A stretch of 57,635 bases of DNA from contig CALVSO010000009.1 in NCBI GenBank assembly GCA_944359055.1, forward strand, positions 1-57,635, read 5' to 3'. The position numbers and the translations under genes are program-made. This document shows, piece by piece, positions 2,455 through 57,125 of the stretch. The notes under the pieces were generated by a model. The model was not told the DNA's origin, searched no databases, and worked only from the letters and a program-made list of their open reading frames with translations. The stretch's first letter is position 1. Each line of letters starts with the position of its first letter. Origin of the DNA: an uncultured Bacilli bacterium. Lineage in GTDB: Bacteria; Bacillota_I; Bacilli_A; RF39; UBA660.

Positions 2455-2516
2455 ACCATCACATCCTATAAAATATTATACCATATTTTTAATATAATAA
2501 ACTAAATTTTAAAACA

Positions 2517-2540
2517 AAGAGTCAATCAATGTTGACTCTT
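2517..2540 (-). terminator. Terminator of the prepilin-like operon
   Basis: AAGAGTCAA and TTGACTCTT form a 9-bp stem with a 6-base loop, followed on the minus strand by TTGTTTT. It lies between the stop of the 577-residue prepilin-like gene and the start of the glycosidase-like gene. Confidence 0.75.
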
Positions 2541-2562
2541 ATTTATCATATATAAATTTAAA

Positions 2563-4296: not shown

Positions 4297-4319
4297 ATAA
4301 TCCTCCTAGTCATTTTTAA

Positions 4320-6239
4320 TCACTGGCTAATGTATGTTATTGTTGCATATCCATTGCCTATTTTTGCGTACTGACTTATTGGGCTGCTAGAAACATTAGT
4401 AGTTGAATAAGTAAGTGTAGAAGCCTCAGTTGAAGTTGTACAATTATAACAATACATCGATTTATTAGTTAATAAAGAATTACCTATATAACTTGAACCT
4501 CCAGCACATGGGGAATTATTTCCTGCTGGTATTCCACCGCCATAATAACCTGCGCCACCACCACAATAAATTCCACCACTTGCACTACCACCATATCCAA
4601 ATCCAGCATTTGAGCCACCTGAAGTTTGACTTCCTCCTACAGATACTCTTTGATTAGTTACATTTTTTGCAACATATCCTCCTGCAGCACCTCCACTTCC
4701 AGATCTGCTCATAGTACCACTATCATAGTTAGCTCCTCCGCCGCCACCAGAGACAATTAAAATATCAGTTTTGTTATTTGATAATGTTGAAAGTTTACCG
4801 CTGATTGTTGCAATATGAGTTGCTCCGCCACCGGCTCCACACATAAAATATCCCTTATCCCAACGAGATGAAAAGGCATTTCCACCACCATTGTATCCGC
4901 CAGTTACACTTGTTACACTACTACCATTAGTAGAAGATCCTTGACCACCAACATTAATATATAAAACAGTATTTTTTTCTAAATATACTTCACCAGAAGA
5001 ATAACCACCATATCCACCTGAATAGGAACCTGTACTTCCACCCTGTGCACCCCATGTTTCTAATTTATAATAACCAGAATATGGTACAACATAAGTTTGC
5101 TCTTTACCGGTATAATCAAAATTAACTGGCTGTGGATTATTTGGCTCAACAATTATTTCTTTTTCAGCGGTCATTGTTTTTCCATTACCACCAGTAATGG
5201 TACAACTAACAACATTTTTCCCAACTTCCAATTCATTTGTATTTGTTGGACTACAATTAACACTGCCACCACTTATACTATAAGATTCATTAAAATAATT
5301 TTTTATTGGATTGTTATATCCTAACACAATAGATATCGTTCCTTCTTTAGCATTTATAGTTGGACTATTTTTATCTACTTTTATATTTATTGCTTCAGTA
5401 GAACTATTACCAGCCAAATCAGTTGTAACAATATAAATCATTGTTCCTAATGTGTTTTGCGTTATACTATTTACACTACTAGTAGTGCTTCTATGCCCAC
5501 TTAATGAATCACTTCCATCTCTTAATATTATTGATACATCTGATATATACCAGTCATTTAGACCTAAAGTTCCAATAAATGTGGCTGTACCTGCAGTTGG
5601 AGGTGTTTTATCTAATTTTAATTGTTCAGTGCAAACAGTTTCGCTTTCACCTGAATTATTAGCTGCCTTTGCACACAAAACATTTGTACCTTCTGCAATT
5701 ATTATTTGAGTACCATTTGGTTTATTTTCTTCTATATTTGGCTCACATTCTGAATCACTTATACAATAATAGTATTTTCGACCTGTTCCGTTGATACTTA
5801 TCATTAAATTTTCATTTAACCAACCATTTTCATTTATTTGTTTTTCGTCATAAGTTAAAGTTATCGATGGTTTTTCTCCTTGAATTTCACATGGTTCGGA
5901 ATATTTAAATTCATATTGTGTTTTATTTTCATCCCAGCGATACAAAACACAGCCTTGTAATTCTTCACCTGTAACAGGATTAATATGCTCTTTATTAGTT
6001 ATAAATCCGGTGCTACTTAACTCATACAATTGTAATGCTTTTTGTTCTGTAGAATATCCTAAATCATATTCAACACTGTAACTATAAGCTGCTCTTTCAA
6101 TATTACTTATTGTTTGCTCTAATGCTTTTTCTTTACTTTTTTGAATTGATTTGTCTATAATTGGATATGTTATTAAAGCCACAATTCCTAAAATTGTTAT
6201 TACAGCTAATAATTCTATTAAAGTAAAAGCTCTTTTCAT
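4320..6239 (-). CDS. Prepilin-like surface protein with glycine-rich domain
   Basis: A 639-residue paralogue of the downstream gene, with leader AFTLIELLAVITILGIVALI directly after MKR. After the shared N-terminal domain come two Ig/Fn3-like repeats with KLDKTPPTAGTATF and DKNSPTINAKEG. Residues about 370-635 are a glycine-rich domain of the ALK/Gly_rich type (YYKLETWGAQGG, YINVGGQG, GGGGGANY, GGGAGYYGGG). The C-terminus ATITYISQ is typical of this domain. In this lineage such proteins look like large surface pseudopilins or adhesins. It precedes the second paralogue by 23 bp and is probably co-transcribed. Ligand and assembly system are not visible here. Confidence 0.8.
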   Translation of the reverse strand: MKRAFTLIELLAVITILGIVALITYPIIDKSIQKSKEKALEQTISNIERAAYSYSVEYDLGYSTEQKALQLYELSSTGFITNKEHINPVTGEELQGCVLYRWDENKTQYEFKYSEPCEIQGEKPSITLTYDEKQINENGWLNENLMISINGTGRKYYYCISDSECEPNIEENKPNGTQIIIAEGTNVLCAKAANNSGESETVCTEQLKLDKTPPTAGTATFIGTLGLNDWYISDVSIILRDGSDSLSGHRSTTSSVNSITQNTLGTMIYIVTTDLAGNSSTEAINIKVDKNSPTINAKEGTISIVLGYNNPIKNYFNESYSISGGSVNCSPTNTNELEVGKNVVSCTITGGNGKTMTAEKEIIVEPNNPQPVNFDYTGKEQTYVVPYSGYYKLETWGAQGGSTGSYSGGYGGYSSGEVYLEKNTVLYINVGGQGSSTNGSSVTSVTGGYNGGGNAFSSRWDKGYFMCGAGGGATHIATISGKLSTLSNNKTDILIVSGGGGGANYDSGTMSRSGSGGAAGGYVAKNVTNQRVSVGGSQTSGGSNAGFGYGGSASGGIYCGGGAGYYGGGIPAGNNSPCAGGSSYIGNSLLTNKSMYCYNCTTSTEASTLTYSTTNVSSSPISQYAKIGNGYATITYISQ

Positions 6240-6290
6240 ATAGCACCATCCTATTCTTTAACAAATTTATACTATATATTTGGCTTAAAT

Positions 6291-7028
6291 TCAATAGATA
6301 GGAAGGGAAATAGATGGTGAATTTTGTAAACCATTTAAATAATAATTCGGAACACTACCTTGAATTAATTTTAAAGCTACTGGAATAGATGTCTCAATAT
6401 CAATTTTATCTGTCACAAAAGGTAATATTACCTGTATAGATAAATCTAATACTACATTTACTTCAATTAAGGCATTATTTATTCCATAATCTGTAACATT
6501 AGTATTTACATAACTTACAATATCACCAACAATACTAAATCTAACCGGTATTTTAGGTCCAATATTAGCTAAAAAAGAATTGCCAAATATTACACCAGAA
6601 GGAATTTCATAAATAATACCTTGTCTTAATTTATCAGTATTATAATCAATTAATGCATCTGTATTTAAATTTAGTAATTCTATTTTACCTTGTTCTAAAT
6701 ATTTTAAATTTGTTTGAATTAAGGTAGTAGTACTAGTTAAAACTTGATTAACTATTATAGGATTAAAATCTATTGATTTAATCTCTTCATTATCTTTAGT
6801 TATTATAAATAAATCATCAACATTTATACTTTCAAAGTTTTTACTAACCGCATCATTAATGATAATGCTAGATAGTTTTCTTGCTTCCATATTCGCATAA
6901 TCTAATAAAATAGGATTGACTTTTAAATTAATAAATTTAAATGATAAAAATAAAGAAATAATTAGTAATGAAATTATTAATATACTATTTTTTATTTTAA
7001 ATTTTCTTTTTAACCTAATTCTTTTCAT
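6291..7028 (-). CDS. yunB: Sporulation protein YunB
   Basis: A 245-residue YunB family protein. In Bacillus yunB is sigma-E controlled and needed for normal spore formation; its biochemical role is unknown. One N-terminal membrane segment (about residues 14-33) is followed by the family's conserved stretch (NPILLDYANMEARKLSSIII) and the central GIIYEIPSGVIFGNSFLANI and GPKIPVRFSIVGD. The ATG at 7028 has GGTGG at good spacing; the in-frame TTG at 7040 lies upstream of that site and is not the start. The gene is intact and transcribed toward the prepilin-like genes. Confidence 0.9.
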   Translation of the reverse strand: MKRIRLKRKFKIKNSILIISLLIISLFLSFKFINLKVNPILLDYANMEARKLSSIIINDAVSKNFESINVDDLFIITKDNEEIKSIDFNPIIVNQVLTSTTTLIQTNLKYLEQGKIELLNLNTDALIDYNTDKLRQGIIYEIPSGVIFGNSFLANIGPKIPVRFSIVGDIVSYVNTNVTDYGINNALIEVNVVLDLSIQVILPFVTDKIDIETSIPVALKLIQGSVPNYYLNGLQNSPSISLPIY

Positions 7029-7077
7029 AGTATCCACCAATATATTTTATTTTTATAATAATATTTTTATACAAATT

Positions 7078-7106
7078 TAAAAAAATACCAGAAATCAATC
7101 TGATAT
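7078..7106 (-). terminator. Terminator after nrdG
   Basis: On the minus strand AAATATCAGA pairs with TCTGGTATTT (one G-U pair), followed by a T-run. It starts two bases beyond the nrdG stop and closes the nrdD operon. Confidence 0.75.
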
Positions 7107-7107
7107 T

Positions 7108-7653
7108 TTAAATATAAACACTAGTTTTTTTCTTTATATTATATTCTTTTTTGTCAATATATTTTGAAACTAAAACTATTTTTTCTTCTTTTAAACTATT
7201 TGGTACATCGATAACTCTTTGATTTTCTGAACCTTTAAATTTTAAATCTAAACTTCTTTGTGATAGTATAAATGGCCCATCTACTAAAACATCAATATAT
7301 TTTAACAATTCTAAATATTTATCATCTTTTAATAATTCTTCAAATAAGAATCCTGTATAACACCAAACATTTAAATTTCTTTCTTTACAATGTTTAGCAA
7401 TTTCTAAACAAGCATCTACTTGATATAAAGGATCTCCACCTGATAATGTTATTCCATCTTGACCTGATATATTATCTATCTCTTCAATTATATATTTAAC
7501 ATCAACTAAATAACCATCTTCAAATGACCATGTTTCAGGATTGTGGCATCCTTTACAATGATGCCCACATCCTTGTGTCCAAATAACTGTTCTAATGCCT
7601 TCTCCATCAACTATACTATCTGATTGCAAAGGAGCTGCTAATCTAATTTTCAT
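7108..7653 (-). CDS. nrdG: Anaerobic ribonucleotide reductase activating protein
   Basis: A 181-residue radical-SAM activase that installs the glycyl radical in class III ribonucleotide reductase. The 4Fe-4S cysteines are C29, C33 and C36 (CGHHCKGC, the CX3CX2C spacing typical of NrdG), followed by the SAM-binding GGDPLYQ. The length is normal, with a slightly longer C-terminal tail (DKKEYNIKKK). Its ATG overlaps the stop of the small glycyl-radical ORF (TAATG), so it is translationally coupled to it. Its substrate would be the glycine of that separate 53-residue protein rather than of the main NrdD chain. Confidence 0.95.
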   Translation of the reverse strand: MKIRLAAPLQSDSIVDGEGIRTVIWTQGCGHHCKGCHNPETWSFEDGYLVDVKYIIEEIDNISGQDGITLSGGDPLYQVDACLEIAKHCKERNLNVWCYTGFLFEELLKDDKYLELLKYIDVLVDGPFILSQRSLDLKFKGSENQRVIDVPNSLKEEKIVLVSKYIDKKEYNIKKKTSVYI

Positions 7654-7814
7654 TATAAAGCTTTATCTAAATCTTTTGTACCATGTTTAACACGATCACG
7701 TTCTTCGGCTCTTTTACCATCGTTAAATCTATCTACAGTTCCTACTAAATAACCTGTAATTCTTCTGATTCTTTCGAATTTAACGCCTTCGCCAACTTTT
7801 TTTTCTTCTTTCAT
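7653..7814 (-). CDS. Stand-alone NrdD glycyl-radical domain
   Basis: A 53-residue ORF with a strong AGGAGG ribosome binding site overlapping the nrdD stop. Residues 11-44 match the extreme C-terminus of class III NrdD (VKFERIRRITGYLVG, then DRFNDGKRAEERDRVKHG). RRITGYLVG corresponds to RVCGYLG of E. coli NrdD, so Gly21 is the predicted radical glycine. The main NrdD chain upstream lacks this motif. The ORF is in frame with nrdD across one TAG and four codons, but its own start and ribosome binding site argue for a separate subunit. The closest functional analogy I know is YfiD/GrcA, a stand-alone glycyl-radical domain for pyruvate formate-lyase. Confidence 0.85.
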   Translation of the reverse strand: MKEEKKVGEGVKFERIRRITGYLVGTVDRFNDGKRAEERDRVKHGTKDLDKAL

Positions 7815-26602: not shown

Positions 26603-28300
26603 ATAAAATTTTAACAATTTATTATATATTCCTGGTTCAATTTTATTTAAAGAATTAATTGTCATTTCTAACGATTTCTGATATTCTCCTTTATAAAATA
26701 ATAACTCAGAATACATTAAATTTTTATTTATTTCATCGGTAACTCTATATCTATTACCATAAACAATAGCATTTTCAGCAAAAACAGCTATTTTCAACAA
26801 TTCTTTAGTTCCAGTGTATAATTTTAAAACCAAATCTCTTGCTGTATCAACTCTAGTATTTAATACACTAATTGTAATAGGTTTCTTTTCTAATTCTTTG
26901 ACTATTTCTTTAATTGCAAGTGAAGCTTCATCTAATTGTGTATAATAATATTGTGGTATAACTGGAAAATTAAATTCTTTAATTTTATTTTTTGATTCTC
27001 TTAAAATTTGTTTAATTTCTTCTAATTGTTGTCTAGCTCTTAATTCATCTTCTTTCATACTACCTAAAGCATCTAATGAATTATCTAATTTATCTTCAAT
27101 ATTATTTAATCTTAAAGATAAAGTTTCTATTTCCTTTATTAATTTTGAATATGCAAAAGTGTGATTTCCTGTATGCGTTTTTAAAACATCATAATCATTA
27201 TTTAAAACATTTAGTTCTTCTTTCACTTGATTTAATAAATTTAAATCTTCTTCTGATAAATTATAAACATTTTTTATATCATTAATCTGACTAAAAATAT
27301 CATCTACTAAACTATTTATTTTAGAAATTTTAGAAACAAATGTATCAACTAATTCATCATAAATATGCCTATCATTTTTTTCTTTTTCAAAATCATTAAA
27401 TAATGAATCAAAATATTCTACTAAAACTTTTAATTCGAATAAGCTGTCTTCTAGATTTAATACTCTTGTTCTATCCATAATATCATTTAATTTCTTATTT
27501 GCTTCAGTTATATTATAATCAACATTTAAATAATCTAAAGGATAGCCTTCTTTAACCATGTCTTGATATATTTGAGATATCTCTGTGATTTTTTTAGGAA
27601 TTACACTAGTTGCCATTAAAACAATAGATGGTACTTCATCAATAACAATTTGCATATGTTTTAACATTTCATCAATAGACTTTATTATCTTAGTGACTTC
27701 ATTATAATCATTATTTTCCATACTTTGTTCAAAAGCTTCAAAACGCTTTGATATATTTTCAAATTGTAATAATACCGAATTAGCTATTTCACCAAATTCT
27801 GATTTTGTACCATTAAACTTATCATATAACTCACGATAAGTAGATTTAAATTTTATAATTATTGCTCTATTTCTTTCTTCACTTGAAGTTATTTCCTTTA
27901 TTTCATCTAATAACATTTCTGTATTAGTTCTTACTTTGTATATTTCCATCTCTAATTTAGCAATTTTAAATACTGTTGTTTTATAATCTTGTTGCTTTAA
28001 AGAATAATCTGCTTCTAAAATCATATCTGTAATTTTAGGTATCTGCATATTTCTAATATCTTTAAATCTATTTTCCCAATCATTTAAATTATTATCTAAT
28101 TTATCGTTTTTTAAAAATGTTTTAATTTTAGATATTTCTGAATTAATAGGTGTACTATCGATAACATTTTTTTCTACTTCTAATTTATCTAAAATATTTT
28201 TATATTTTTTATTTCTATTATTTTGAAGTAAATTTAAAACTATTACTACAATAATAACAGTAACAACATAAATACTAACCGCAATTAATGTTACACTCAT
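26597..28300 (-). CDS. ezrA: Septation ring formation regulator EzrA
   Basis: A 567-residue EzrA, a membrane-anchored negative regulator of FtsZ ring assembly and a divisome component of Firmicutes. One N-terminal transmembrane helix (about residues 4-24) is followed by Lys-rich linkers and about 530 residues of spectrin-like coiled coil. Family features include NDWENRFKDIRN and the C-terminal YGNRYRVTDEINKNLMYSELLFYKGEYQKSLE. The length is close to the Bacillus protein (562). The start at 28300 follows AGGTGGTAGG. Together with rpsD, thiI and a SASP gene it preserves a Bacillus-like gene neighbourhood. Confidence 0.94.
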   Translation of the reverse strand: MSVTLIAVSIYVVTVIIVVIVLNLLQNNRNKKYKNILDKLEVEKNVIDSTPINSEISKIKTFLKNDKLDNNLNDWENRFKDIRNMQIPKITDMILEADYSLKQQDYKTTVFKIAKLEMEIYKVRTNTEMLLDEIKEITSSEERNRAIIIKFKSTYRELYDKFNGTKSEFGEIANSVLLQFENISKRFEAFEQSMENNDYNEVTKIIKSIDEMLKHMQIVIDEVPSIVLMATSVIPKKITEISQIYQDMVKEGYPLDYLNVDYNITEANKKLNDIMDRTRVLNLEDSLFELKVLVEYFDSLFNDFEKEKNDRHIYDELVDTFVSKISKINSLVDDIFSQINDIKNVYNLSEEDLNLLNQVKEELNVLNNDYDVLKTHTGNHTFAYSKLIKEIETLSLRLNNIEDKLDNSLDALGSMKEDELRARQQLEEIKQILRESKNKIKEFNFPVIPQYYYTQLDEASLAIKEIVKELEKKPITISVLNTRVDTARDLVLKLYTGTKELLKIAVFAENAIVYGNRYRVTDEINKNLMYSELLFYKGEYQKSLEMTINSLNKIEPGIYNKLLKFYE

Positions 28301-33298: not shown

Positions 33299-33787
33299 TC
33301 AAGAAATAAAATTAATAAATAAAATACTAATCATTATACTTATTAAATCTGCTAATAGGCCAACCCATAAAGCATATTTTATTTTTTTAATACCAATACT
33401 ACCAAAATATAACGTTAAAATATAAAAAGTTGTATCAGTAGTTCCCTGAATATAAGAAGCAAGTGTTCCTAACATACTATCAGGACCAAACAATTCATAA
33501 ATATTAGTTAAAATAGCTAAAGAAGATGTCCCAGATATTGGCCGCATTATTATCATTGGTATTATTTGATTAGGAATAAACGATATAAATTTAAATAAAT
33601 CAATTATGTTACTATTTAAAAATATATTCACAGATAAAATCATAGCTAGTAAACATGGAAATAACTTAAATACTAAATCAAAACTTTCTTTAGCACCTTC
33701 AATAAATGTATCATATATCGCAACTTTTTTAATAATACCATAAATAATTACAAATAAAACAATTAATGGCATTACATAATTAGACAT
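33299..33787 (-). CDS. spmB: Spore maturation protein B
   Basis: A 162-residue membrane protein of the nucleoside-recognition/SpmB family, needed in Bacillus for spore-core dehydration and heat resistance. Four or five hydrophobic segments; signatures include FIEGAKESFDLVFKLFPCLL, MRPISGTSSLAIL and YIQGTTDTTFYILTLYFGSI. The ATG at 33787 overlaps the end of spmA and follows GAGGT; the earlier start at 33811 lies deeper in spmA without one. It is the last gene of the dacB-spmA-spmB operon. Confidence 0.95.
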   Translation of the reverse strand: MSNYVMPLIVLFVIIYGIIKKVAIYDTFIEGAKESFDLVFKLFPCLLAMILSVNIFLNSNIIDLFKFISFIPNQIIPMIIMRPISGTSSLAILTNIYELFGPDSMLGTLASYIQGTTDTTFYILTLYFGSIGIKKIKYALWVGLLADLISIMISILFINFIS

Positions 33788-34358
33788 ATAACCTCGCAAA
33801 TATCCTATCAATTATTAAACCCGATAAAGTACTTAAAAAAGTTATTATTATACATGGTAAAACAATACCTGTTGGATTAGAACTTCCATACATCATTCTT
33901 AAAGAAATAATTGTAGTAGGTATTATTGTTACTCCACTAGTATTTAAAACTAAAAAAGTAATCATAGATCTACTAGCAGTATCTTTTTTTTTATTTAATT
34001 GTTGTAGTGATTGCATTGCTTTTAAACCAAAAGGAGTAGCAGCATTACCTAATCCAAACATATTAGCAATTATATTTGAACTTATATAACTCAATGATTC
34101 ATGATTGGTTGGTATTTCTGGAAAAATATGTTTTAATACGATTGATAATTTAGTAGATAGTTTTTTTAGTAATCCTGATACCTCAGCTATTTTAGCTATG
34201 CCTAACCATAAAGCCATAACCGGAAATATTTTTATAATCATATCAAAAGAAGTCTTAGTACTATTTAATATAGATTCATTTACTACTTCAACATTATTAT
34301 TTAATAGACAATATAATACACCAATTATGATAAAATAACCCCATATTTTATTTACCAT
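33780..34358 (-). CDS. spmA: Spore maturation protein A
   Basis: A 192-residue membrane protein of the SpmA family, partner of SpmB in spore-core dehydration. Family signatures are MVNKIWGYFIIIGVLY, MALWLGIAKIAEVSGLL, NMFGLGNAATPFGLKAMQ and FLVLNTSGVTIIPTTII. It overlaps the stop of the dacB 3' segment by 7 bp and spmB by 8 bp, so the three are translationally coupled. With the intervening element in place it is separated from the likely dacB promoter. It may then be expressed only from element transcripts or not at all. Confidence 0.95.
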   Translation of the reverse strand: MVNKIWGYFIIIGVLYCLLNNNVEVVNESILNSTKTSFDMIIKIFPVMALWLGIAKIAEVSGLLKKLSTKLSIVLKHIFPEIPTNHESLSYISSNIIANMFGLGNAATPFGLKAMQSLQQLNKKKDTASRSMITFLVLNTSGVTIIPTTIISLRMMYGSSNPTGIVLPCIIITFLSTLSGLIIDRIFARLYV

Positions 34359-35266
34359 AAATTACTAATCCACTCCTTTAATTTTTGAAAAAAACTTTTT
34401 TCTTCTTTTTTAGTAACATATATATCTTCTTCGTGAACTTTTTTATCATTTACTAATACTTCAACTACTCCTACTTTATCATTATCAGAATAATTTTGTT
34501 TTTTTTCTAATTTAAAATTTAATAAAACATTGTTCTTTTCATTATTATTTAAAGTATAATTAAAATTATTTTTTATATATAAGCTATCTAAGTAATATTT
34601 TTCATCGATAATTTCTATTTCACCTTCTTTTAAAATATTGTAATTAGTATAATTATCAAATGCTTCTTCAAATAAATTTATATGATCTACAAAATCATTA
34701 CCATCATTTAATGTAACAACTACCAAATTAACATTATCTTTAGAAGCTGTTGTTACTAATGTTCGCTTAGCTACATCAGTAAATCCAGTTTTACCACCTG
34801 TAATATAATCATGACTATGTAATAATTTATTTTTATTTATCCATGAATAATAATTCATATTGGTTCTTAAAGTATACTTTTTTGTACTTACTATTTTTTT
34901 ATACGTTTCATTTTTCATAGCATAACTAGTTAATAATGCCATATCGTATGCTGTGGATAAGTTGCCACCATTTTCATCTAAACCATGCGGATTGTTAAAT
35001 TTACTGTTTTTCATCCCGATTTCCACAGCTTTTTTGTTCATTAATTCAACAAAACTTTCAACATCTCCACCAACATAATTTGCAATAGCTAAAGCAGCAT
35101 CATTACCACTTCTTAACATTAAACCATATAATAATGATTCTAAAGTTATTTCTTCTCCTTGTTTAATATATATACCTGAGCCATAAGCCTTAGTTATTTC
35201 ATCACCAATCGTTACAACATCATTTATGTCTTTATTTTCAATTGCTACTATAGCTGTCATTATTTT
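34352..35266 (-). CDS. dacB: DacB-type D,D-carboxypeptidase, 3' segment (interrupted gene)
   Basis: The C-terminal 304 residues of a penicillin-binding D-alanyl-D-alanine carboxypeptidase. It begins inside the SxxK motif at the Lys codon and continues KIMTAIVAIENKD. The second motif SGN (LRSGNDAAL) and third motif KTG (GGKTGFTD) are intact, as is the C-terminal beta domain ending in an amphipathic helix (FFQKLKEWISNLW). It lacks the signal peptide and catalytic Ser, which are at 39802-39972 beyond a 4.55-kb element. Joining at AA (35265-35266 with 39818-39819) gives a 355-residue protein with S49-I-S-K52. In Bacillus DacB trims cortex peptidoglycan in the mother cell. As it stands this segment cannot be active. 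Confidence 0.93.
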   Translation of the reverse strand, partial: KIMTAIVAIENKDINDVVTIGDEITKAYGSGIYIKQGEEITLESLLYGLMLRSGNDAALAIANYVGGDVESFVELMNKKAVEIGMKNSKFNNPHGLDENGGNLSTAYDMALLTSYAMKNETYKKIVSTKKYTLRTNMNYYSWINKNKLLHSHDYITGGKTGFTDVAKRTLVTTASKDNVNLVVVTLNDGNDFVDHINLFEEAFDNYTNYNILKEGEIEIIDEKYYLDSLYIKNNFNYTLNNNEKNNVLLNFKLEKKQNYSDNDKVGVVEVLVNDKKVHEEDIYVTKKEEKSFFQKLKEWISNLW

Positions 35267-36872
35267 CATTATGACTACATAACTGCTTATTATAGGTAAA
35301 ATTATTGTAGTCCCATATATACTTAATATTTAAAATATTTATGTATATATCAAGAACTACTTTTTTTTCATTACATGGAATATTTTCTACTACAATTTTA
35401 TTAATTAATAATTTAGATAATTTATCAAAATTATCATTTATAAAATCATTAACATTTATTTTTTTAATTCCAGATATTACAGCAAAAATATCATTGTTTT
35501 CTAATTTCTTTGCTTCATTAGTTAAATATAATATTTCATTATTATATTTCTTATTTCTATTTTCAAATTCATCTTTAGTAATTATTTTATCAATGTATAA
35601 TTCTAGTAAACTTTCTTTTTTTAAATCTAAATTATTTATTTCTTTTTTTAATCTTTTTATTTCATTATCTGTACTACAATTAATATTTTTATAGACATTA
35701 AACAGATTGTTCATTATATCATCAAAATTGTTAATTAAATCATTGTATATATACTTAAAAATTTTATCTAATTCACTTTCATATAATCTAATACTTTTAC
35801 ATTCTTTTAATCCATGAGTTACATATTCATTACATATCCAATAACTTTTTCCATTATTAGCAATTCTTTTATATTTCTTATTATGATGTTTACAATAAAT
35901 AATTCCACTGTAAGAATATTTTTTCATAAACACTCGTGTTTCTTCAATATTTTTCAAATAATTAGTTTTTTTTGATTTTAATATTTCATTTGCTTTATCC
36001 CAAAGTTCTTCTGATACTATAGCAGGTATTTCACCATTACTTTCCTTTATAATCCACTCTTCCATAGGAAGTCTTATTTGCTTTTTATTTTTATAATCTT
36101 TAGTCATTACCGTATTAGTACAATAAAAACCTTTATATTTTGGATTAGTTATTATTCTTCTTAAAGTAGTTATGTGAATAAAATCACCTTTTTTAGTTTT
36201 GTAGCCTTCATTGTAAAGTTTTTTTGATATTTTTGCTAATCCATATTCTCCTGATGCATACATTGAATATATTTTTCTAATTAATATAGCTTCTTTTTCA
36301 TTTATTTCTAATTTACCTTTATTCTTCGTATAACCTGTAATTGTATTATTTCCAAGAACAACTCCTTTTTCTTTTGATCTTTTCATTCCAAATCTTACTC
36401 TTTCAGATAATTTTCTTACTTCCTCTTGAGCAATAGATGACATGATAGTAAGCCTAAGTTCAGAATCAGGTAATATAGTATTAATGTTATCTGATAAAAA
36501 TAATACACCAACATCATTCTCTAATAATTCTTGCGTATATTTTATACTATCTACTGTATTTCTAGAAAATCTTGATATTTCTTTTGTCAATATTAAATCA
36601 AAATAACCATCTTTAGCATCCTTTATCATTTTTAAAAAATTTGTTCTATTTTTTACACTAGTCCCACTAATGCCTTCATCTACATAGCCATTAACATAAG
36701 TCCAATTTCTATTATCTTTAATAAAATTTTCAAAATAAAGAATTTGGTTATCTAAAGAATTAAGTTGAACATCTTTATCTGTAGATACGCGTGCATAAAA
36801 AGTAACTCTAAGTGGTATATTGTAAATACTTTCACCTTTAGATATTTCATTTCTTATTTTACATAAATCCAT
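35238..36872 (-). CDS. Large serine recombinase of the dacB intervening element
   Basis: A 544-residue large serine recombinase. The catalytic domain has Ser30 in VTFYARVSTDKD, SGTSVKNRTNFLKMI and the Arg-rich ITKEISRFSRNTVDSI. The 'recombinase' domain (about residues 185-290) has GYTKNKGKLEINEKEAILIR and YKGFYCTNTVMTKDYKNKK. A zinc ribbon follows (IIYCKHHNKKYKRI, WICNEYV) and a coiled coil about 400-470. It probably excises the 4.55-kb element. Its last nine codons lie beyond the crossover point, within dacB, read in another frame. It follows a tiny coupled ORF and ends the cargo operon. Confidence 0.93.
   Translation of the reverse strand: MDLCKIRNEISKGESIYNIPLRVTFYARVSTDKDVQLNSLDNQILYFENFIKDNRNWTYVNGYVDEGISGTSVKNRTNFLKMIKDAKDGYFDLILTKEISRFSRNTVDSIKYTQELLENDVGVLFLSDNINTILPDSELRLTIMSSIAQEEVRKLSERVRFGMKRSKEKGVVLGNNTITGYTKNKGKLEINEKEAILIRKIYSMYASGEYGLAKISKKLYNEGYKTKKGDFIHITTLRRIITNPKYKGFYCTNTVMTKDYKNKKQIRLPMEEWIIKESNGEIPAIVSEELWDKANEILKSKKTNYLKNIEETRVFMKKYSYSGIIYCKHHNKKYKRIANNGKSYWICNEYVTHGLKECKSIRLYESELDKIFKYIYNDLINNFDDIMNNLFNVYKNINCSTDNEIKRLKKEINNLDLKKESLLELYIDKIITKDEFENRNKKYNNEILYLTNEAKKLENNDIFAVISGIKKINVNDFINDNFDKLSKLLINKIVVENIPCNEKKVVLDIYINILNIKYIWDYNNFTYNKQLCSHNENNDSYSSN
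35245..35286 (-). other. attR-like site at the dacB 3' junction
   Basis: The minus-strand order is element arm TATGTAGTCATAAT, then G, core AA (35265-35266), then the dacB arm beginning AATAATGACAGC. The element arm is the exact inverse of the arm at the other junction. The dacB arm carries AGCTATA, mirrored by TATAGCT at the same distance in the 5' segment. Confidence 0.85.
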
Positions 36873-36982
36873 TAATTATCAACTCCTAATTTTTTTAATG
36901 TTTCATTATAAATCTGAAAATTAATATAATTATTTTCATATAAATATTCATTTAAAATAATACTAAGTTCATTAATTAACAA
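36872..36982 (-). CDS. Tiny ORF coupled to the recombinase
   Basis: A 36-codon ORF starting at TTG 36982 (or GTG 36991), with GGTGA five bases before the TTG. It ends LKKLGVDN, and its TAA overlaps the recombinase ATG (TAATG). The peptide is helical (LLINELSIILNEYLYENNYI). It could be a leader for translational coupling or a small directionality or regulatory factor. There is no homology I recognise and no ATG start, so confidence is modest. Confidence 0.45.
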   Translation of the reverse strand: MLINELSIILNEYLYENNYINFQIYNETLKKLGVDN

Positions 36983-37007
36983 TTGTATCACCAATTAAAT
37001 TTATTAA

Positions 37008-37044
37008 ACAAAAAAAGAAATAATTACTAATCAATCATTTCTTT
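37008..37044 (-). terminator. Weak terminator after the nuclease-helicase gene
   Basis: On the minus strand AAAGAAAT pairs with ATTTCTTT across a 15-base loop, followed by T's. It overlaps the stop of the nuclease-helicase gene and may limit read-through into the recombinase. Confidence 0.45.
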
Positions 37045-38891
37045 TTAATACAATTTATTTGTTCCTTAAAATAATTATTTAATTCTTCATTTACACAATA
37101 TATATAACACCCTTTAATTCCTCTAGTCAATAATACTCTATACGTGTTTTTAATTATTGTATCAGATATTTCTCTTGCCATTATCTCATTTTCTTTATAC
37201 ATTTTTTTTATACCTTTAAAAGATGAATCAGAGGAAGCATGATTTTGAAAATCTGTACATACTTTCCCATCTTTAAAATACAAGTCTTCTCCAATAATTA
37301 CTCCAACGTAATCAAATTCTAATCCTTGTACTGAATGTACACATCCTGCTTCATTTATAGAATCATCTATAGCAAAAGTTTGTTTTGCACCTAAATTCCA
37401 ACTTATACCATAATCTCCTATTTGAATATCGTGATAATCAGTATTATTAATTTCATCTTTATTCCAATTCCAGCAATAACCTGCTACAATTCTTGATTTA
37501 TTATTTTCAGCATTTTTAATTTTTATTAATTCCTCTAATTCTTGTGGTGTATCACATACTGCTATATCATAATTTATTTTACCAACATAATTGTTGGTAT
37601 TTCCTAATATATAATCAATGAATTTTAGATAATTATCTGAGCCTTTACATCTAAACTGAGATTCTAGTTTGAATTCTATTATATTAGCATTTAAATTTGC
37701 TGCCCATCTTTTTATTTCATTTTTTGTACCGATATCATTTAAATGAACTTTTTGTTTTTCATCTATAAAAAATATAGAACATTTTGCTGAATTAATTATC
37801 TCTTTTATTTGATTTTCACCATAATTATTAAACAATCCAGATTTTTCTGTTAGACAATGTGCTTCGTCTACTATTAAAACATCAAATATATCTTTATCTG
37901 TTTCTGTATATGCTCCAGATGTTTTGAACAAATTATCTATACTTGTCTTATTTAATGTTCCTTTTAATTTAGTTCCATAAATTACTCTTGGTGCTGTATT
38001 TCTAGAAACATATTGACATAGTTTTCCTTGATTTGTTAATGTTGCTAATAAGTTTACTGCAATTACAGATTTTCCAGTACCGGGTCCACCTTCTACAATG
38101 ATTACATTTTTTTCTTCTCTTTTTATTGCTGATAATATTTCATCATAGATTATCATTTGATTATCTATTAATTTAAATTCTTTATTTCCTTTTAAGAGTT
38201 TATCTATATTTTCTTGCAAACTTTTAGATGGTAATAATTTACTACTATCAATTTCTTGAATTATAGATAAGTTATCTCCATAACTGAATTTTTTATTTAT
38301 AAATTCTATTATTTTTTCTTCATCATTTTGAAAAAATATTGGTACTTCTTTAATTAGTTCTGTAAATTTATTATCTAGGATTGGATCATCGTTGTTTGGT
38401 ATATAGTTATGTAAAATTGAACATGCTTCTACGACGATATTATTTTCTTGTATATTTTGGTTAAAATCTTTCAACAACATCTTATATGTCCAAGCTTGAT
38501 ATGATGGATGAACTACTTTTTTTAATCCATTTCCAACATATGTTTCTAATAATATATCACTATCTTCTATTCTGTTTACTTTTGACCATTGTTTTAATTC
38601 AATAATAAGAACATTTTTTTTATTTTCTATATCATATCCACATAACATAAAATCTATTCTGCTTGATGTCATTGGAAGATTATATTCTAGTGATACAGTA
38701 CAATCTTTTGGAATATTACTTTGATTCAATATTTCACTCATATATTTTAACGAATTTTCCCAAGATTGTTTCTCTGATATTGTTGTTCCTTCATACAGTT
38801 CTTTTTGTTTCATATTTTCTAAAATATATGTGATTTTATTATTATTTATATCCTCAATAAAATCACTAACTCTTGAACTGTATAAAATCAT
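37035..38891 (-). CDS. Nuclease-helicase: PD-(D/E)XK-like domain fused to DUF2075 helicase
   Basis: A 618-residue protein. Residues about 60-130 resemble a restriction-endonuclease fold (SSRIDFMLCGYD, then NVLIIELKQWS). From about 240 there is a DUF2075/Schlafen-like superfamily-1 helicase: Walker A IVEGGPGTGKSVIAVNLLA, Walker B DVLIVDEAHCL, motif III-like IFFIDEKQKVH, the SQFR motif (LESQFRCKGSDNYL), VHSVQGLEFDYVGVIIG and the terminal NTYRVLLTRGIKGCYIYC. Such proteins occur in mobile elements and defence islands. Here it is cargo of the dacB element, and a role in defence or element maintenance is inference. AAGGAGGAAG precedes the ATG. Confidence 0.88.
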   Translation of the reverse strand: MILYSSRVSDFIEDINNNKITYILENMKQKELYEGTTISEKQSWENSLKYMSEILNQSNIPKDCTVSLEYNLPMTSSRIDFMLCGYDIENKKNVLIIELKQWSKVNRIEDSDILLETYVGNGLKKVVHPSYQAWTYKMLLKDFNQNIQENNIVVEACSILHNYIPNNDDPILDNKFTELIKEVPIFFQNDEEKIIEFINKKFSYGDNLSIIQEIDSSKLLPSKSLQENIDKLLKGNKEFKLIDNQMIIYDEILSAIKREEKNVIIVEGGPGTGKSVIAVNLLATLTNQGKLCQYVSRNTAPRVIYGTKLKGTLNKTSIDNLFKTSGAYTETDKDIFDVLIVDEAHCLTEKSGLFNNYGENQIKEIINSAKCSIFFIDEKQKVHLNDIGTKNEIKRWAANLNANIIEFKLESQFRCKGSDNYLKFIDYILGNTNNYVGKINYDIAVCDTPQELEELIKIKNAENNKSRIVAGYCWNWNKDEINNTDYHDIQIGDYGISWNLGAKQTFAIDDSINEAGCVHSVQGLEFDYVGVIIGEDLYFKDGKVCTDFQNHASSDSSFKGIKKMYKENEIMAREISDTIIKNTYRVLLTRGIKGCYIYCVNEELNNYFKEQINCIKKK

Positions 38892-38951
38892 ACTACTTCC
38901 TCCTTAATTTTCTTTGAAGATTTTCACAATTATATGTCAAATATTCACCTG

Positions 38952-39149
38952 TTATAACATTTCTTCTGCATTTACCTTTTGTAAAAATATTTCTTTGTCA
39001 TAAAAATAATAATCGAAACCATCTTTCTCTCCTTCACGTGGTTTCCTTGTTGTACATGTTGTAAATTTTTTAAAGTTATTATCTTTCAAGAACATTTCTG
39101 TTAATGTTCCCTTCCCAGCACCGCTAGGTCCACTAAAAACTATATTCAT
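38952..39149 (-). pseudogene. Guanylate-kinase-like fragment
   Basis: 65 codons matching the N-terminal third of guanylate kinase: P-loop [17 protein letters not shown], then [20 protein letters not shown], ending at NAEEML followed by TAA. The next frame continues with GEYLTYNC, which resembles the following stretch of the family, so a frameshift plus truncation is likely. The GMP-binding and lid regions are missing. A strong GGGGGAG precedes the ATG at 39149. The P-loop is intact, so a truncated nucleotide-binding protein is possible, but decay is more likely. Confidence 0.8.
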
Positions 39150-39226
39150 AAATATATCTCCCCCCTTGAATTGCCTTGTATTATAGCATAAATTCCGTTT
39201 TTTTCCAAACAAAAAACAACTATTTG

Positions 39227-39634
39227 TTAGTTGCTTTTCAAATCTATTTTAATTTCTTCGATAATATGTCCTATATTTCCTTCTCCTGCATATCTGTTCA
39301 TATCAAAGAAATTATCGTTAACACTTATCCATTCTAGTTTATTTACTTCTTCGATTAGTTCTACTTCATTTTTTAATATTCCATAATAAACTTCTAATTC
39401 TTTATTCCATTTAGTATAAGTAAGATTCATAAAATGAATTAAATCTATATCCTTCTTCTTAATATTAGTTTCTTCTTCTAATTCTCTATATGCTTCATTT
39501 AATCCATCATTTTCTTTTTCTATTTTTCCACCTACTAAATTATACATTCCCATATATGGTTCTTTTGTTCTTTTACACATTAATGTATTTTCTAGTTTAT
39601 TATCAAATACTACAATAACATTCATTTTTTTCAT
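39227..39634 (-). CDS. Nudix hydrolase
   Basis: A 135-residue Nudix enzyme, probably hydrolysing a (d)NTP derivative. The Nudix box [20 protein letters not shown] followed by ETNI fits GX5EX7REUXEEXGU with minor spacing variation. Upstream, [19 protein letters not shown] is the usual substrate-entry strand. The C-terminal part has no distinctive specificity motif. It is the first gene of the element's operon, with a good sigma-A promoter and GGGGGAAG ribosome binding site. Next to a guanylate-kinase remnant and a nuclease-helicase it may belong to a nucleotide-based defence module, which is speculative. Confidence 0.9.
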
Positions 39635-39652
39635 TGTACTTCCCCCATAGTA

Positions 39653-39681
39653 ATTATATCATTTTACGATAGATGCTTCAA
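39653..39681 (-). promoter_or_regulatory. Sigma-A promoter of the element's cargo operon
   Basis: TTGAAG (39676-39681) and TATAAT (39653-39658) with a 17-bp spacer, 18 bp before the Nudix ATG. It reads through cargo and recombinase toward dacB, spmA and spmB. Confidence 0.7.
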
Positions 39682-39796
39682 CAAACTCATTGTTAAAATT
39701 TAACTATATTTTTGTTATTATATGAACTACAATTTCATAATACATTTTATAGTTTATTTGAAATAAATTATTAGTATTTCTTATATATTTTGAATT

Positions 39797-39838
39797 CATT
39801 ACTATGTAGTCATAATATTAGATATTGAAGCTATACTT
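39797..39838 (-). other. attL-like site at the dacB 5' junction
   Basis: The minus-strand order is the dacB arm (TATAGCTTCAATATCT), core AA (39818-39819), T, then the element arm ATTATGACTACATA. The element arm is the exact reverse complement of the one at 35268-35281. Confidence 0.85.
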
Positions 39839-39972
39839 CTAATCTCATTCATATTATTAGAGTATATAACATTTAAGCTATCCATATCCATTAAAACTGT
39901 ACTAGTGGCACTACTAGAATAAGCTTTAATATTTATTGGTATTAATAATAATAAAATCAACAATTTTTTCAC
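39802..39972 (-). CDS. dacB: DacB-type D,D-carboxypeptidase, 5' segment (interrupted gene)
   Basis: 57 codons from a GTG at 39972 (AGGTGATTTT upstream) to a TAG just inside the element. It has a signal peptide (KKLLILLLLIPINIKA) and then the standard start of the carboxypeptidase domain: STVLMDMDSLNVIYSNNM, then IASIS. The following N-I-M-T-T is element-encoded and replaces K-I-M-T-A. Only the catalytic Ser49 of SxxK is present; the Lys is on the 3' segment. Read up to the AA core, it joins in frame to the segment ending at 34352. By itself it would make a non-functional exported peptide. Confidence 0.9.
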   Translation of the reverse strand: MKKLLILLLLIPINIKAYSSSATSTVLMDMDSLNVIYSNNMNEIRSIASISNIMTT

Positions 39973-39987
39973 AAAATCACCTATAAA

Positions 39988-40015
39988 ATAGTATGAAAAA
40001 AAGTCTAATTATAGA
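39988..40015 (-). promoter_or_regulatory. Candidate sigma-E promoter of dacB
   Basis: CATACTAT (39988-39995) resembles the sigma-E -10 (CATACAMT) and TCTATAA (40009-40015) is a plausible -35 with a 13-bp spacer. The implied start lies just before the ribosome binding site. It overlaps the terminator of the upstream gene. Mother-cell expression of dacB is known in Bacillus; here it is inferred. Confidence 0.45.
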
Positions 40016-53693: not shown

Positions 53694-55016
53694 TTATAAA
53701 GATAAATCGTCATCTTTTTCATTCTTAGTACTATAAAATTTTTCAGCACTTTCTTCCATTTCAGCATTAATATGTTTAATAGATTTTTCTATTTCTTTTT
53801 TATCAAACAAATTTAATCCTTTGAATATTTTTTCTTCCTTCTTCTTAACTTCTGGATCATATTGCTGTTTAAAAAACTTTATATCAATATTATTGTAATT
53901 AAATAACCTATCAATTATATTTTGTATAAATTTTGGAAGTTTTTTTATTATTTTGTTTAAATGATAAATAAGATAATCTGTTTTTTCTTTTAAATCATTA
54001 TATTTAGTTTCATATTGATAGTTCATAGTTTTTAAATGATTATTTTCTTCTTTTAATTTTTTATTTTCATCCATCAATTGATTTTTAGATTTTAACACTA
54101 TTTTATTATTAATCTTTTTCTTTTTATCTATTTCATCAGTTATATCATTTTTATCTTTGCTAAGTCTAGTTAATTCTTTATTTATTATGTTCTTATTATC
54201 TTCTAAACCTGATACTTCGTTACGAAGATTAGATAATTCTTTCTTTAATTCGTTGGCTTTTTCATTAAATTTTAATCTTTCATATGGAGAATAATCTCTA
54301 TTTTTGCCTTTTTGTTTTTCTTTTAGTTTATTATCTAATTGATAAATTTGATTAAATTCATTGATACATCTTTCTCTCATTTTGTCTTGAATAACAACTA
54401 AAGATTCCTTTGTAAAAATAGACGTTTTACCAACTTGTCTTGATAAACCAGTTTTACAATTTTCTTTTACAGGAACACCAATTATATGCAAATGTGGGGA
54501 GTGTTCATCAAAATGACAAGTAGCATTTGCTATATAAAAATCTGGAACAATTTCTTTTAAATCATCTAATTGCATTTTAAACACCTTAATCATCTCGTAT
54601 TTATATTCTAAACTTTTATCTTCCCAGTAAGCCATATCCCCAAGTTCAATAATTATTTCACAAGCAAGATCATGTTTATTATCACTACTTATCTTATTAA
54701 AGTAATTATCTATTTTTCTATCTTCTCTTATTTGCTTATTATTATATTCCAATCTTGCTTCTTCAAATAAATCAAAATACAATTTTTTAACATCTTTAGT
54801 AATATCATTTGAACCTTTAATGATTTGGATTAATTCTTGATTATTATTATATTGTCTTAAATTATGATGATTAATTTTTCCGAGTTGTTTAACATTTTGA
54901 ATTGCATTATTACTTTTGTTAGTTGTTCCCGATAAAGTATTTTTTGCTTCTTGTCTTGCTTTAATAGTTTTATTGCTATCATTACCTAAATGAAATGAAT
55001 AAGATAATTCCATCAT
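53694..55016 (-). CDS. mob: Plasmid mobilization relaxase (Mob/Pre, MobV type)
   Basis: A 440-residue relaxase that nicks oriT for conjugal mobilization. The N-terminus MMELSYSFHLGND is followed by the relaxase core ATCHFDEHSPHLHIIGVPV, with the metal-binding His triad region. The C-terminal 200 residues are a long coiled coil (KELSNLRNEVSGLEDNKNII). It starts at 55016 with GGAGGT. It depends on a conjugation machinery elsewhere, as none is in the window. A hairpin-rich region 65-125 bp upstream is the likely oriT. Confidence 0.93.
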   Translation of the reverse strand: MMELSYSFHLGNDSNKTIKARQEAKNTLSGTTNKSNNAIQNVKQLGKINHHNLRQYNNNQELIQIIKGSNDITKDVKKLYFDLFEEARLEYNNKQIREDRKIDNYFNKISSDNKHDLACEIIIELGDMAYWEDKSLEYKYEMIKVFKMQLDDLKEIVPDFYIANATCHFDEHSPHLHIIGVPVKENCKTGLSRQVGKTSIFTKESLVVIQDKMRERCINEFNQIYQLDNKLKEKQKGKNRDYSPYERLKFNEKANELKKELSNLRNEVSGLEDNKNIINKELTRLSKDKNDITDEIDKKKKINNKIVLKSKNQLMDENKKLKEENNHLKTMNYQYETKYNDLKEKTDYLIYHLNKIIKKLPKFIQNIIDRLFNYNNIDIKFFKQQYDPEVKKKEEKIFKGLNLFDKKEIEKSIKHINAEMEESAEKFYSTKNEKDDDLSL

Positions 55017-55080
55017 ATATTTACCTCCTCTAAATTGAATATTGTAATAGTACAAAAGTAGTATTGTCATTATTCATAAC

Positions 55081-55134
55081 TTCCTATATATCTTGTCAAA
55101 AACAAGATATGGAAGCTAAGGTTTACCACCTTAG
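55081..55134. other. Candidate oriT hairpins
   Basis: Between relaxase and recombinase, two strong inverted repeats lie side by side. The first is ATATCTTGT-N5-ACAAGATAT, extended by TTCC/GGAA around one bulged T (55081-55114). The second is CTAAGGT-N5-ACCTTAG (55116-55134). Neither is followed by a T-run. Position upstream of mob and double-hairpin form fit an oriT; the nic site is not identified. The rest of 55017-55256 shows nothing else. Confidence 0.5.
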
Positions 55135-55256
55135 GAACCGTTTACTTTATTGCGTAATAACCCAAAAATTTGTATTGGTTAAAACTTCATAAAGTATTAG
55201 TTTTAAATTGCTATCACCACTTTCATTTACTTTGTAAACAAAACGTGCCACGCATT

Positions 55257-57125
<1,869 letters not shown>

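What the first reader, a model, noticed from the sequence alone, without database searches (positions are those of the whole stretch)
34352..39972. A 4.55-kb recombinase element splits a DacB-type sporulation gene inside its active-site motif
The 5' segment (39802-39972) has a signal peptide and runs to IASIS; the 3' segment (34352-35266) begins with KIMTAIVAIE and has intact SGN and KTG motifs. Joining them at AA gives a 355-residue carboxypeptidase with S49-I-S-K52. The gene is followed by overlapping spmA and spmB, then rluB, the Bacillus dacB order. Both halves are undamaged, which argues for a reversible interruption. In Bacillus, sigK (skin), spsM and gerE are rebuilt this way in the mother cell, where the change is not inherited. 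I cannot verify whether a dacB interruption has been reported.
Basis: partly seen in the sequence, partly recalled or inferred. Interest (0 to 1): 0.95.

Follow-up and report, generated by a model that had tools for sequence, protein, structure and literature searches.

The report
Spore-gene switch: recombinase splits dacB
In the genome of an uncultured, likely gut-dwelling bacterium a 4.6-kb mobile DNA element splits the spore-wall gene dacB inside its catalytic motif; its own recombinase is predicted to cut it out again, likely in the mother cell during spore formation, and relatives of that recombinase lie against pieces of other spore genes in many other bacteria.

Summary
A 4,553-bp element splits a DacB-type gene at an AA inside the S-I-S-K codons. 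AA is the only dinucleotide shared by both gene arms and both element arms, and the rebuilt attP is a palindrome centred on it, as for large serine recombinases. The joined protein's best solved match is DacB, E 1e-84. Of 18 genus genomes, 12 have unbroken dacB with the same junction, 5 are split, 1 shows none. Of 100 related recombinase loci collected by recombinase similarity alone, 85 lie against a sporulation gene (spoVD 41, dacB 21, sigK 17, spoIVA 6) and 3 against an unassigned S11 gene. The same genome's spoVD lies in three pieces. This fits developmentally excised, skin-type elements. Excision was not observed; 'undamaged halves' is weak evidence, because the element moved recently between species. 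My searches found no report of dacB, spoVD or spoIVA as such a switch. Real; a new variant of a known kind; timing inferred.

The parts
39818..39972 (-). dacB 5' half (signal peptide through S-I-S and the first two bases of the K codon)
   Evidence: N-terminal HMM E 1.3e-27
39981..39995 (-). Conserved box CATACTATTTTATAG just upstream of dacB; presumed promoter -10 region (resembles sporulation sigma -10 boxes as recalled)
   Evidence: exact in 13 of the 18 dacB upstream regions printed, changed in 5
39793..39844 (-). attL, core AA at 39819-39818
39227..39634 (-). cargo: NUDIX hydrolase
   Evidence: PF00293, E 3e-10
38952..39212 (-). cargo: truncated guanylate kinase; G009 has a longer reading frame here (365 aa, cut by the contig), so a shortened gene
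37035..38891 (-). cargo: Schlafen group 3 DNA/RNA helicase-domain protein, possible defence gene
   Evidence: PF09848, E 2.9e-96; PADLOC PDC-S41 E 2e-20, Nhi E 1e-12
36872..36982 (-). 36-aa small ORF directly before the recombinase; candidate recombination directionality factor
   Evidence: homologue in 19 of 19 eligible dacB-element loci
35238..36872 (-). large serine recombinase, 544 aa (Resolvase, Recombinase and zinc-ribbon domains); its last codons run into attR and dacB
   Evidence: PHROG 95 integrase, E 5e-109
35240..35291 (-). attR, core AA at 35266-35265
34352..35266 (-). dacB 3' half (from K52; SGN and KTG motifs)
   Evidence: (PF00768, E 5e-52)
33780..34358 (-). SpmA-like gene, overlaps dacB by 7 bp
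   Evidence: PF07670
33299..33811 (-). SpmB-position gene (name by position only)
   Evidence: no hit

Best explanation
This 4,553-bp segment is a mobile element of the large-serine-recombinase type inserted at the AA of dacB's S-I-S-K codons, and its precise excision would restore dacB, likely in the sporulating mother cell. Shown by sequence: the recombinase, the att sites, the 2-bp core, the open halves, and relatives with the unbroken gene. Inferred: the recombinase, helped by the 36-aa protein encoded just before it, recombines attL with attR, frees a circle with the palindromic attP, and rejoins dacB and with it spmA-spmB to the dacB promoter. Inferred: this happens in the mother cell, which dies, so the split copy is what the spore inherits; an element that chooses mother-cell genes therefore costs its host little and spreads. 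The recombinase belongs to a lineage that favours such genes, so one cell may have to remove several elements: in this genome one from dacB and at least two interruptions from spoVD.
For: Site: only AA is common to both gene arms and both element arms, and attP is an inverted repeat centred on it. Target choice: 115 recombinase loci collected by recombinase similarity alone, 100 after removing duplicates. Of the 100, 85 lie against a sporulation gene: spoVD 41, dacB 21 (20 at SxxK, of which G006/L144 is a repaired gene beside a truncated recombinase; 1 at SGN, L159), sigK 17, spoIVA 6; 3 lie against an S11 gene that I could not assign, 8 against something else or unidentified, 4 end with the contig. 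Of the 86 loci labelled by BLAST, those three included, 83 matches begin within 80 bp of the recombinase stop; two more labels (L074, L094) were read by eye. Target labels cluster on the recombinase tree (17 changes against 62.6 in shuffles, 0 of 200 as low; quick tree, near-copies included); NCBIfam names the spoVD, sigK and spoIVA representatives (partial proteins, below the curated cut-offs). dacB-spmAB, spoVD and spoIVA are listed together as sigma-E-controlled cortex genes of B. subtilis (PMC517825, passages). Host: Spo0A C-terminal domain in 18 of 18 and SpoIVA in 17 of 18 genus genomes, while spoVD is full length in 4 of 18; of the other 14, 11 show two or three pieces with shared break points and 3 show one piece. 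If those splits were permanent, most of the genus would be expected to lack the cortex enzyme yet keep the rest. Repair: in the four genus genomes with element cargo beside dacB but no complete recombinase (G001, G006, G008, G016) dacB is whole; in G006, G008 and G016 the new 5' end is preceded by the tail of the desulfoferrodoxin gene, so it was regained from another allele; the three split loci whose contigs reach the recombinase (G000, G014, G012) have it complete. The small ORF before the recombinase has a homologue in 69 of 96 eligible loci, 19 of 19 for dacB and 38 of 38 for spoVD, against 1 of 470 control peptides. Recombinase dN/dS is roughly 0.06-0.4 in the printed pairs with synonymous divergence above 0.3 (40 of 91 pairs printed). 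Same architecture as C. difficile skin, whose recombinase lies immediately before the sigK 3' half (PMC5025042, passages).
Against: No joined dacB in this genome and no attP of this element was found: 0 matches with up to 3 mismatches in 386 family genomes (own included, but only 5 of the 18 genus genomes) and 0 exact matches in IMG/VR; an assembly shows only the majority state. Recent transfer makes intact halves uninformative; two near-identical recombinase pairs have dN/dS above 1 on very few changes. One split dacB (G042/L060) has a frameshift in the 3' half. Two spoVD pieces in the genus contain a stop (G015:C30, G007:C57), and I saw recombinases beside spoVD pieces only in G000, G001 and G013. 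Most target genes outside dacB and the genus's spoVD were seen on one side only. No sporulation-type promoter could be assigned to the recombinase or small ORF. In 2 of 13 genomes (G191, G249) no 5' half was found, and some 5' halves lie on another contig. The small ORF is seldom matched in the sigK group (1 of 17) and in 3 of 6 spoIVA loci; its model was iterated on the same pool, and Pfam gives only sub-threshold SHOCT hits for two of seven. Sporulation of this lineage has not been seen.
Confidence: 0.73

Rival explanations
1. An ordinary mobile element that uses conserved active-site DNA of dacB as its landing site, with no developmental control: carriers would be impaired in sporulation until the element is lost or the gene repaired.
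For: Recent horizontal spread; repaired alleles next to cargo remnants; only 5 of 18 genus genomes have dacB split; variable, shortened cargo; stops in two spoVD pieces.
Against: Targets are sporulation genes in 85 of 100 loci rather than conserved genes at large; spoVD is not full length in 14 of 18 genomes that all keep Spo0A; a conserved partner ORF.
Confidence: 0.19
2. A reversible and heritable switch: excision and reinsertion in growing cells give mixed populations of fast and slow spore formers (bet-hedging).
For: For the yabG element of C. botulinum integrated and excised subpopulations were reported in a pure culture (PMC10747680, passages including part of the abstract). An attP-type junction of a spoVD-type element stands unbroken on contig C20 of this genome.
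Against: The assigned targets dacB, spoVD, spoIVA and sigK are mother-cell genes in B. subtilis, where heritability does not matter; C20 may instead be the inner junction of a tandem array; no free attP of the dacB element.
Confidence: 0.06
3. An assembly or binning artefact.
For: The genome is a 48-contig assembly of 92% completeness.
Against: The same junctions are assembled in other genomes (G014, G009, G005, G012 and named contigs) with different flanks.
Confidence: 0.01

Closest known systems
skin elements in sigK (B. subtilis SpoIVCA; C. difficile CD1231/CD1234)
   Same: A serine recombinase inside the element next to one half of a sporulation gene; a small partner protein in C. difficile; precise in-frame rejoining expected (passages of PMC5025042, and PMC4191935).
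   Different: Target is dacB, not a sigma factor; 4.6 kb with no phage structural gene found; the candidate partner ORF sits directly before the recombinase; excision not shown here.
gin in gerE (B. cereus ATCC10987; GirC/GirX)
   Same: A gene-intervening element without phage genes, excised by a serine recombinase with a directionality factor (PMC5595907, passages including the abstract).
   Different: gin is 28.6 kb with three recombinases; here one recombinase, 4.6 kb, and a different target.
SPbeta in spsM, vfbin in spoVFB, vrin in spoVR, yin in yabG
   Same: Natural interruption of a sporulation gene by a recombinase element (PMC4191935 passages; PMC10747680 passages).
   Different: Prophages or phage-like; other genes. 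The passages seen do not name dacB, spoVD or spoIVA as targets.
fdxN element of heterocyst-forming cyanobacteria (XisF)
   Same: Developmental gene rejoining by a serine recombinase (recalled); NCBIfam XisF model matches at 94.7 bits.
   Different: Far below the model's cut-off of 375 bits; different development and target.

Membership tests
Large serine recombinase element | Resolvase catalytic domain plus Recombinase and zinc-ribbon domains | tested here: met
   all three above Pfam cut-offs
Large serine recombinase element | 2-bp core shared by attB, attP, attL, attR; palindromic attP | tested here: met
Sporulation gene-intervening (skin-type) element | Sits inside the coding region of a sporulation gene, both halves open, unbroken gene in relatives | tested here: met
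Sporulation gene-intervening (skin-type) element | Host able to sporulate | tested here: inconclusive
   Spo0A 18 of 18, SpoIVA 17 of 18 genus genomes; no phenotype
Sporulation gene-intervening (skin-type) element | Directionality factor encoded in the element | tested here: inconclusive
   conserved small ORF, function untested
Sporulation gene-intervening (skin-type) element | Excision timed to sporulation in the mother cell | not testable with these tools
   needs reads or culture
Sporulation gene-intervening (skin-type) element | Prophage-like gene content (usual, but absent from gin) | tested here: not met
   only an integrase and helicase or nucleotide-metabolism families in PHROGs
DacB orthologue | S11 carboxypeptidase with SxxK, SGN, KTG and the dacB-spmA gene order | tested here: met
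   spmB by position only

The most novel reading that the evidence does not exclude
A lineage of mobile serine-recombinase elements in small-genome Bacilli has specialised on the mother cell's cortex and coat genes (dacB, spoVD at three or more sites, spoIVA) at conserved or catalytic motifs, moves between genera, and makes sporulation depend on several programmed deletions in one cell, so that spore genes look lost when they are only cut up.
Probability: 0.54. Interest if true: 0.87.

Novelty: new variant of a known kind. Interest (0 to 1): 0.77.

Why it matters
It extends programmed gene rejoining from a few transcription-factor, coat and maturation genes to the enzymes that build the spore cortex, in uncultured bacteria, and suggests that one genome can carry several such interruptions. 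It gives a reason why selfish elements would choose mother-cell genes: that genome is never inherited. It also warns annotators: a 2024 survey (PMC10868615, passages) reports reduced presence or absence of spoVD and spmB in the order RF39; if the family studied here belongs to it (my recollection, not a call), some 'losses' may be split genes. The sites are short and defined, so the idea can be tested by mapping reads to two junctions.

Tried and rejected
attP search for a free circle: none. tRNA landing site: no tRNA in the window. Sporulation-sigma promoter for the recombinase: only about 40 bp lie between a terminator-like repeat and the small ORF, and I could not assign a promoter type; the box before dacB is conserved but fits more than one recalled sporulation sigma consensus. 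Age of the insertion from the halves: abandoned, because the recombinase moves faster than its host gene. C20 of this genome as an excised circle: left open; no terminal overlap, flanking gene found in no other of 18 genus genomes. A site scan with short patterns was too noisy and was replaced. The script labelled L060 as an SGN insertion; searches show it is the dacB SxxK site with a frameshift, and I count it there. L159, also labelled SGN, is counted as dacB: 47% identity to the window's dacB and rluB follows, although no spmA match was found. L152, L158 and L160 (28-36%) stay unassigned; a piece of L160 matches several S11 enzymes, DacB 3mfd best. The two weakest sigK labels are L134 (E 3e-4) and L139 (E 1e-5). 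Rows dropped: 15 duplicate loci of 115 before the count of 100; 3 short recombinases left out of the tree (97 rows); six dacB-site loci (L059, L060, L094, L144, L167, L168) left out of the pairwise comparison (14 used). PMC5553647 (C. tetani) came up and was not read.
Full report
What is there. On the minus strand a 5' dacB half (39972-39818), a 4,553-bp segment and a 3' half (35266-34352) follow one another. The segment carries a NUDIX gene, a truncated guanylate kinase, a Schlafen-group-3 helicase-domain protein, a 36-aa ORF and a 544-aa large serine recombinase whose last codons run into attR and the dacB 3' half. PHROGs and PADLOC name an integrase, nucleotide-metabolism families and possible defence families, no phage structural gene.

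The junction. Aligning attL, attR and the unbroken gene of relatives leaves AA as the only shared dinucleotide. The rebuilt attP has two perfect 14-bp arms around it: 14 of 18 pairs, reached by 0 of 9,964 centres of the 10-kb region. attB alone is not remarkable, 279 of 9,964. The join gives 355 aa with S49-I-S-K52; its best solved match is DacB 3mfd at E 1.1e-84, the next 3.4e-30.

The genus. Of 18 genomes, 12 have a full-length dacB with S-I-S-K at the junction (11, G017), 5 are split (G000, G014, G012 with complete recombinase; G009 and G005 with contig breaks), and none was found in G010. Four of the 12 carry element cargo beside the whole gene without a complete recombinase: G006 has residues 1-275 of it, G001, G008 and G016 show none. 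In G006, G008 and G016, and again in the older of two tandem elements of G012, the tail of the upstream desulfoferrodoxin gene precedes the new 5' half; in G012 and G016 the whole original copy of that gene is seen as well. So the gene was made whole by capture of an intact allele, and G012 was then entered again. Spo0A is present in 18 of 18 and SpoIVA in 17 of 18.

Mobility. G000 and G014 elements are 99-100% identical in 250-bp bins over their length, while the dacB 3' half is 93-95% and the flanks 80-98% identical; the 5' half is 99%. L096 has a 99% identical recombinase in a dacB of 52% identity. The element therefore moves between species and probably genera and keeps its target.

The recombinase family. 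With the recombinase as query, 90 of 291 family genomes match at E 1e-80 or better (loci were made for the best 30). In named genome contigs 149 stretches encode a relative, of which 79 distinct loci were kept, and in IMG/VR 6. After removal of 15 duplicates of 115, 100 loci remain. What lies against the recombinase's end is spoVD in 41 (three sites), dacB in 21 (20 at SxxK, one of them the repaired G006; one at SGN), sigK in 17 (11 of them in the opposite orientation), spoIVA in 6, an unassigned S11 gene in 3; 8 are other or unidentified and 4 end with the contig. Of 86 BLAST-labelled loci 83 matches begin within 80 bp of the recombinase stop; the exceptions are L060, L144 and L165. NCBIfam names the spoVD, sigK and spoIVA representatives. 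Target labels cluster on the tree. Each recombinase of at least 74% identity to the window's whose flank was held lies against dacB, split or, in G006, repaired.

Integrity of split copies. In 19 loci looked at, the 3' half is open in one frame over nearly its whole length in 15, frameshifted in 1 (G042), cut by the contig in 2 and broken by a second element in 1 (VR_L168). Of 13 genomes outside the genus that carry the element, 11 have an open 5' half in a frame of 60-87 aa, some on another contig than the recombinase; G191 and G249 show only paralogues.

A second split gene in the same genome. spoVD lies in pieces on C3, C34 and C5: TIGR02214 positions 4-348, 343-413, 410-636. Recombinases stand directly before the second and third pieces. 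Against the unbroken G014 gene the first junction shares AA and the second three bases (read by eye). In the genus spoVD is full length in 4 of 18; 11 of the other 14 show two or three pieces with common break points, 3 show one piece; two pieces contain a stop. A recombinase beside the piece was seen in G000, G001 and G013 only; the others were not looked at.

Candidate directionality factor. A small ORF with a shared pattern stands directly before the recombinase in 19 of 19 eligible dacB loci, 38 of 38 spoVD loci, 3 of 6 spoIVA loci, 1 of 17 sigK loci and 69 of 96 overall; 1 of 470 control peptides matched. The model was iterated on the same pool, so this shows conservation, not function. 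Pfam gives sub-threshold SHOCT hits for two of seven.

Reading. B. subtilis dacB-spmAB, spoVD and spoIVA are listed together as sigma-E-controlled cortex genes (PMC517825, passages). Elements that land in genes used only by the mother cell can be removed there without loss of inheritance. I therefore take this as a skin-type element with a new target. That excision occurs, that the small ORF controls it, and that it is confined to the mother cell are inferences. Rejoining would also put spmA-spmB back behind the conserved dacB box, again an inference.

Literature. Searches of the held open library returned elements in sigK, spsM, gerE and yabG (listings), and passages name spoVFB and spoVR too (PMC4191935, PMC5595907, PMC5025042 and PMC10747680). 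I saw no natural reversible interruption of dacB, spoVD or spoIVA in these listings and passages. spoVD is known as a secondary ICEBs1 site from which excision was undetectable (PMC3715440, passages). Most subscription papers and all preprints are outside the library.

Noticed in passing
G000 contigs C3:218-1237, C34:2897-3109, C5:64127-64795 (L227, L201, L200): spoVD of the same genome is in three pieces, with related serine recombinases directly before the second and third.
   Followed up: yes
L199 (G000:C20:1-9000), about 1.5 kb from the contig start: An unbroken attP-like junction of a spoVD-type element on a 22-kb contig with what look like glycan-synthesis genes: an excised circle or the inner junction of a tandem array.
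   Followed up: partly
L168 (IMG/VR), 1807-7745: dacB interrupted twice: at SxxK beside a recombinase, and again near the SGN motif downstream of a second, partial recombinase match.
   Followed up: partly
L035 (G012:C8), two 5' halves and one 3' half: Two tandem insertion events: an older element without recombinase followed by a regained 5' half, which a second element with different cargo then split.
   Followed up: yes
L102, L103, L104, L145, L147, L154: spoIVA lies against a related recombinase, including two named Ruminiclostridium strains (L104, L147).
   Followed up: partly
G017:C4:42915-44786 with C2:27840-28859 and C4:50959-51168: A full-length spoVD together with leftover spoVD pieces (one with a stop), resembling the repaired dacB cases.
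   Followed up: no
G150:C48:24728-24902 and 27906-28079: Two dacB 5' halves about 3 kb apart, the first broken between two frames; possibly a tandem insertion as in G012.
   Followed up: no
window 53694-57119: A second serine recombinase (620 aa) beside what looks like a relaxase gene at the window's end; target and ends not determined.
   Followed up: no
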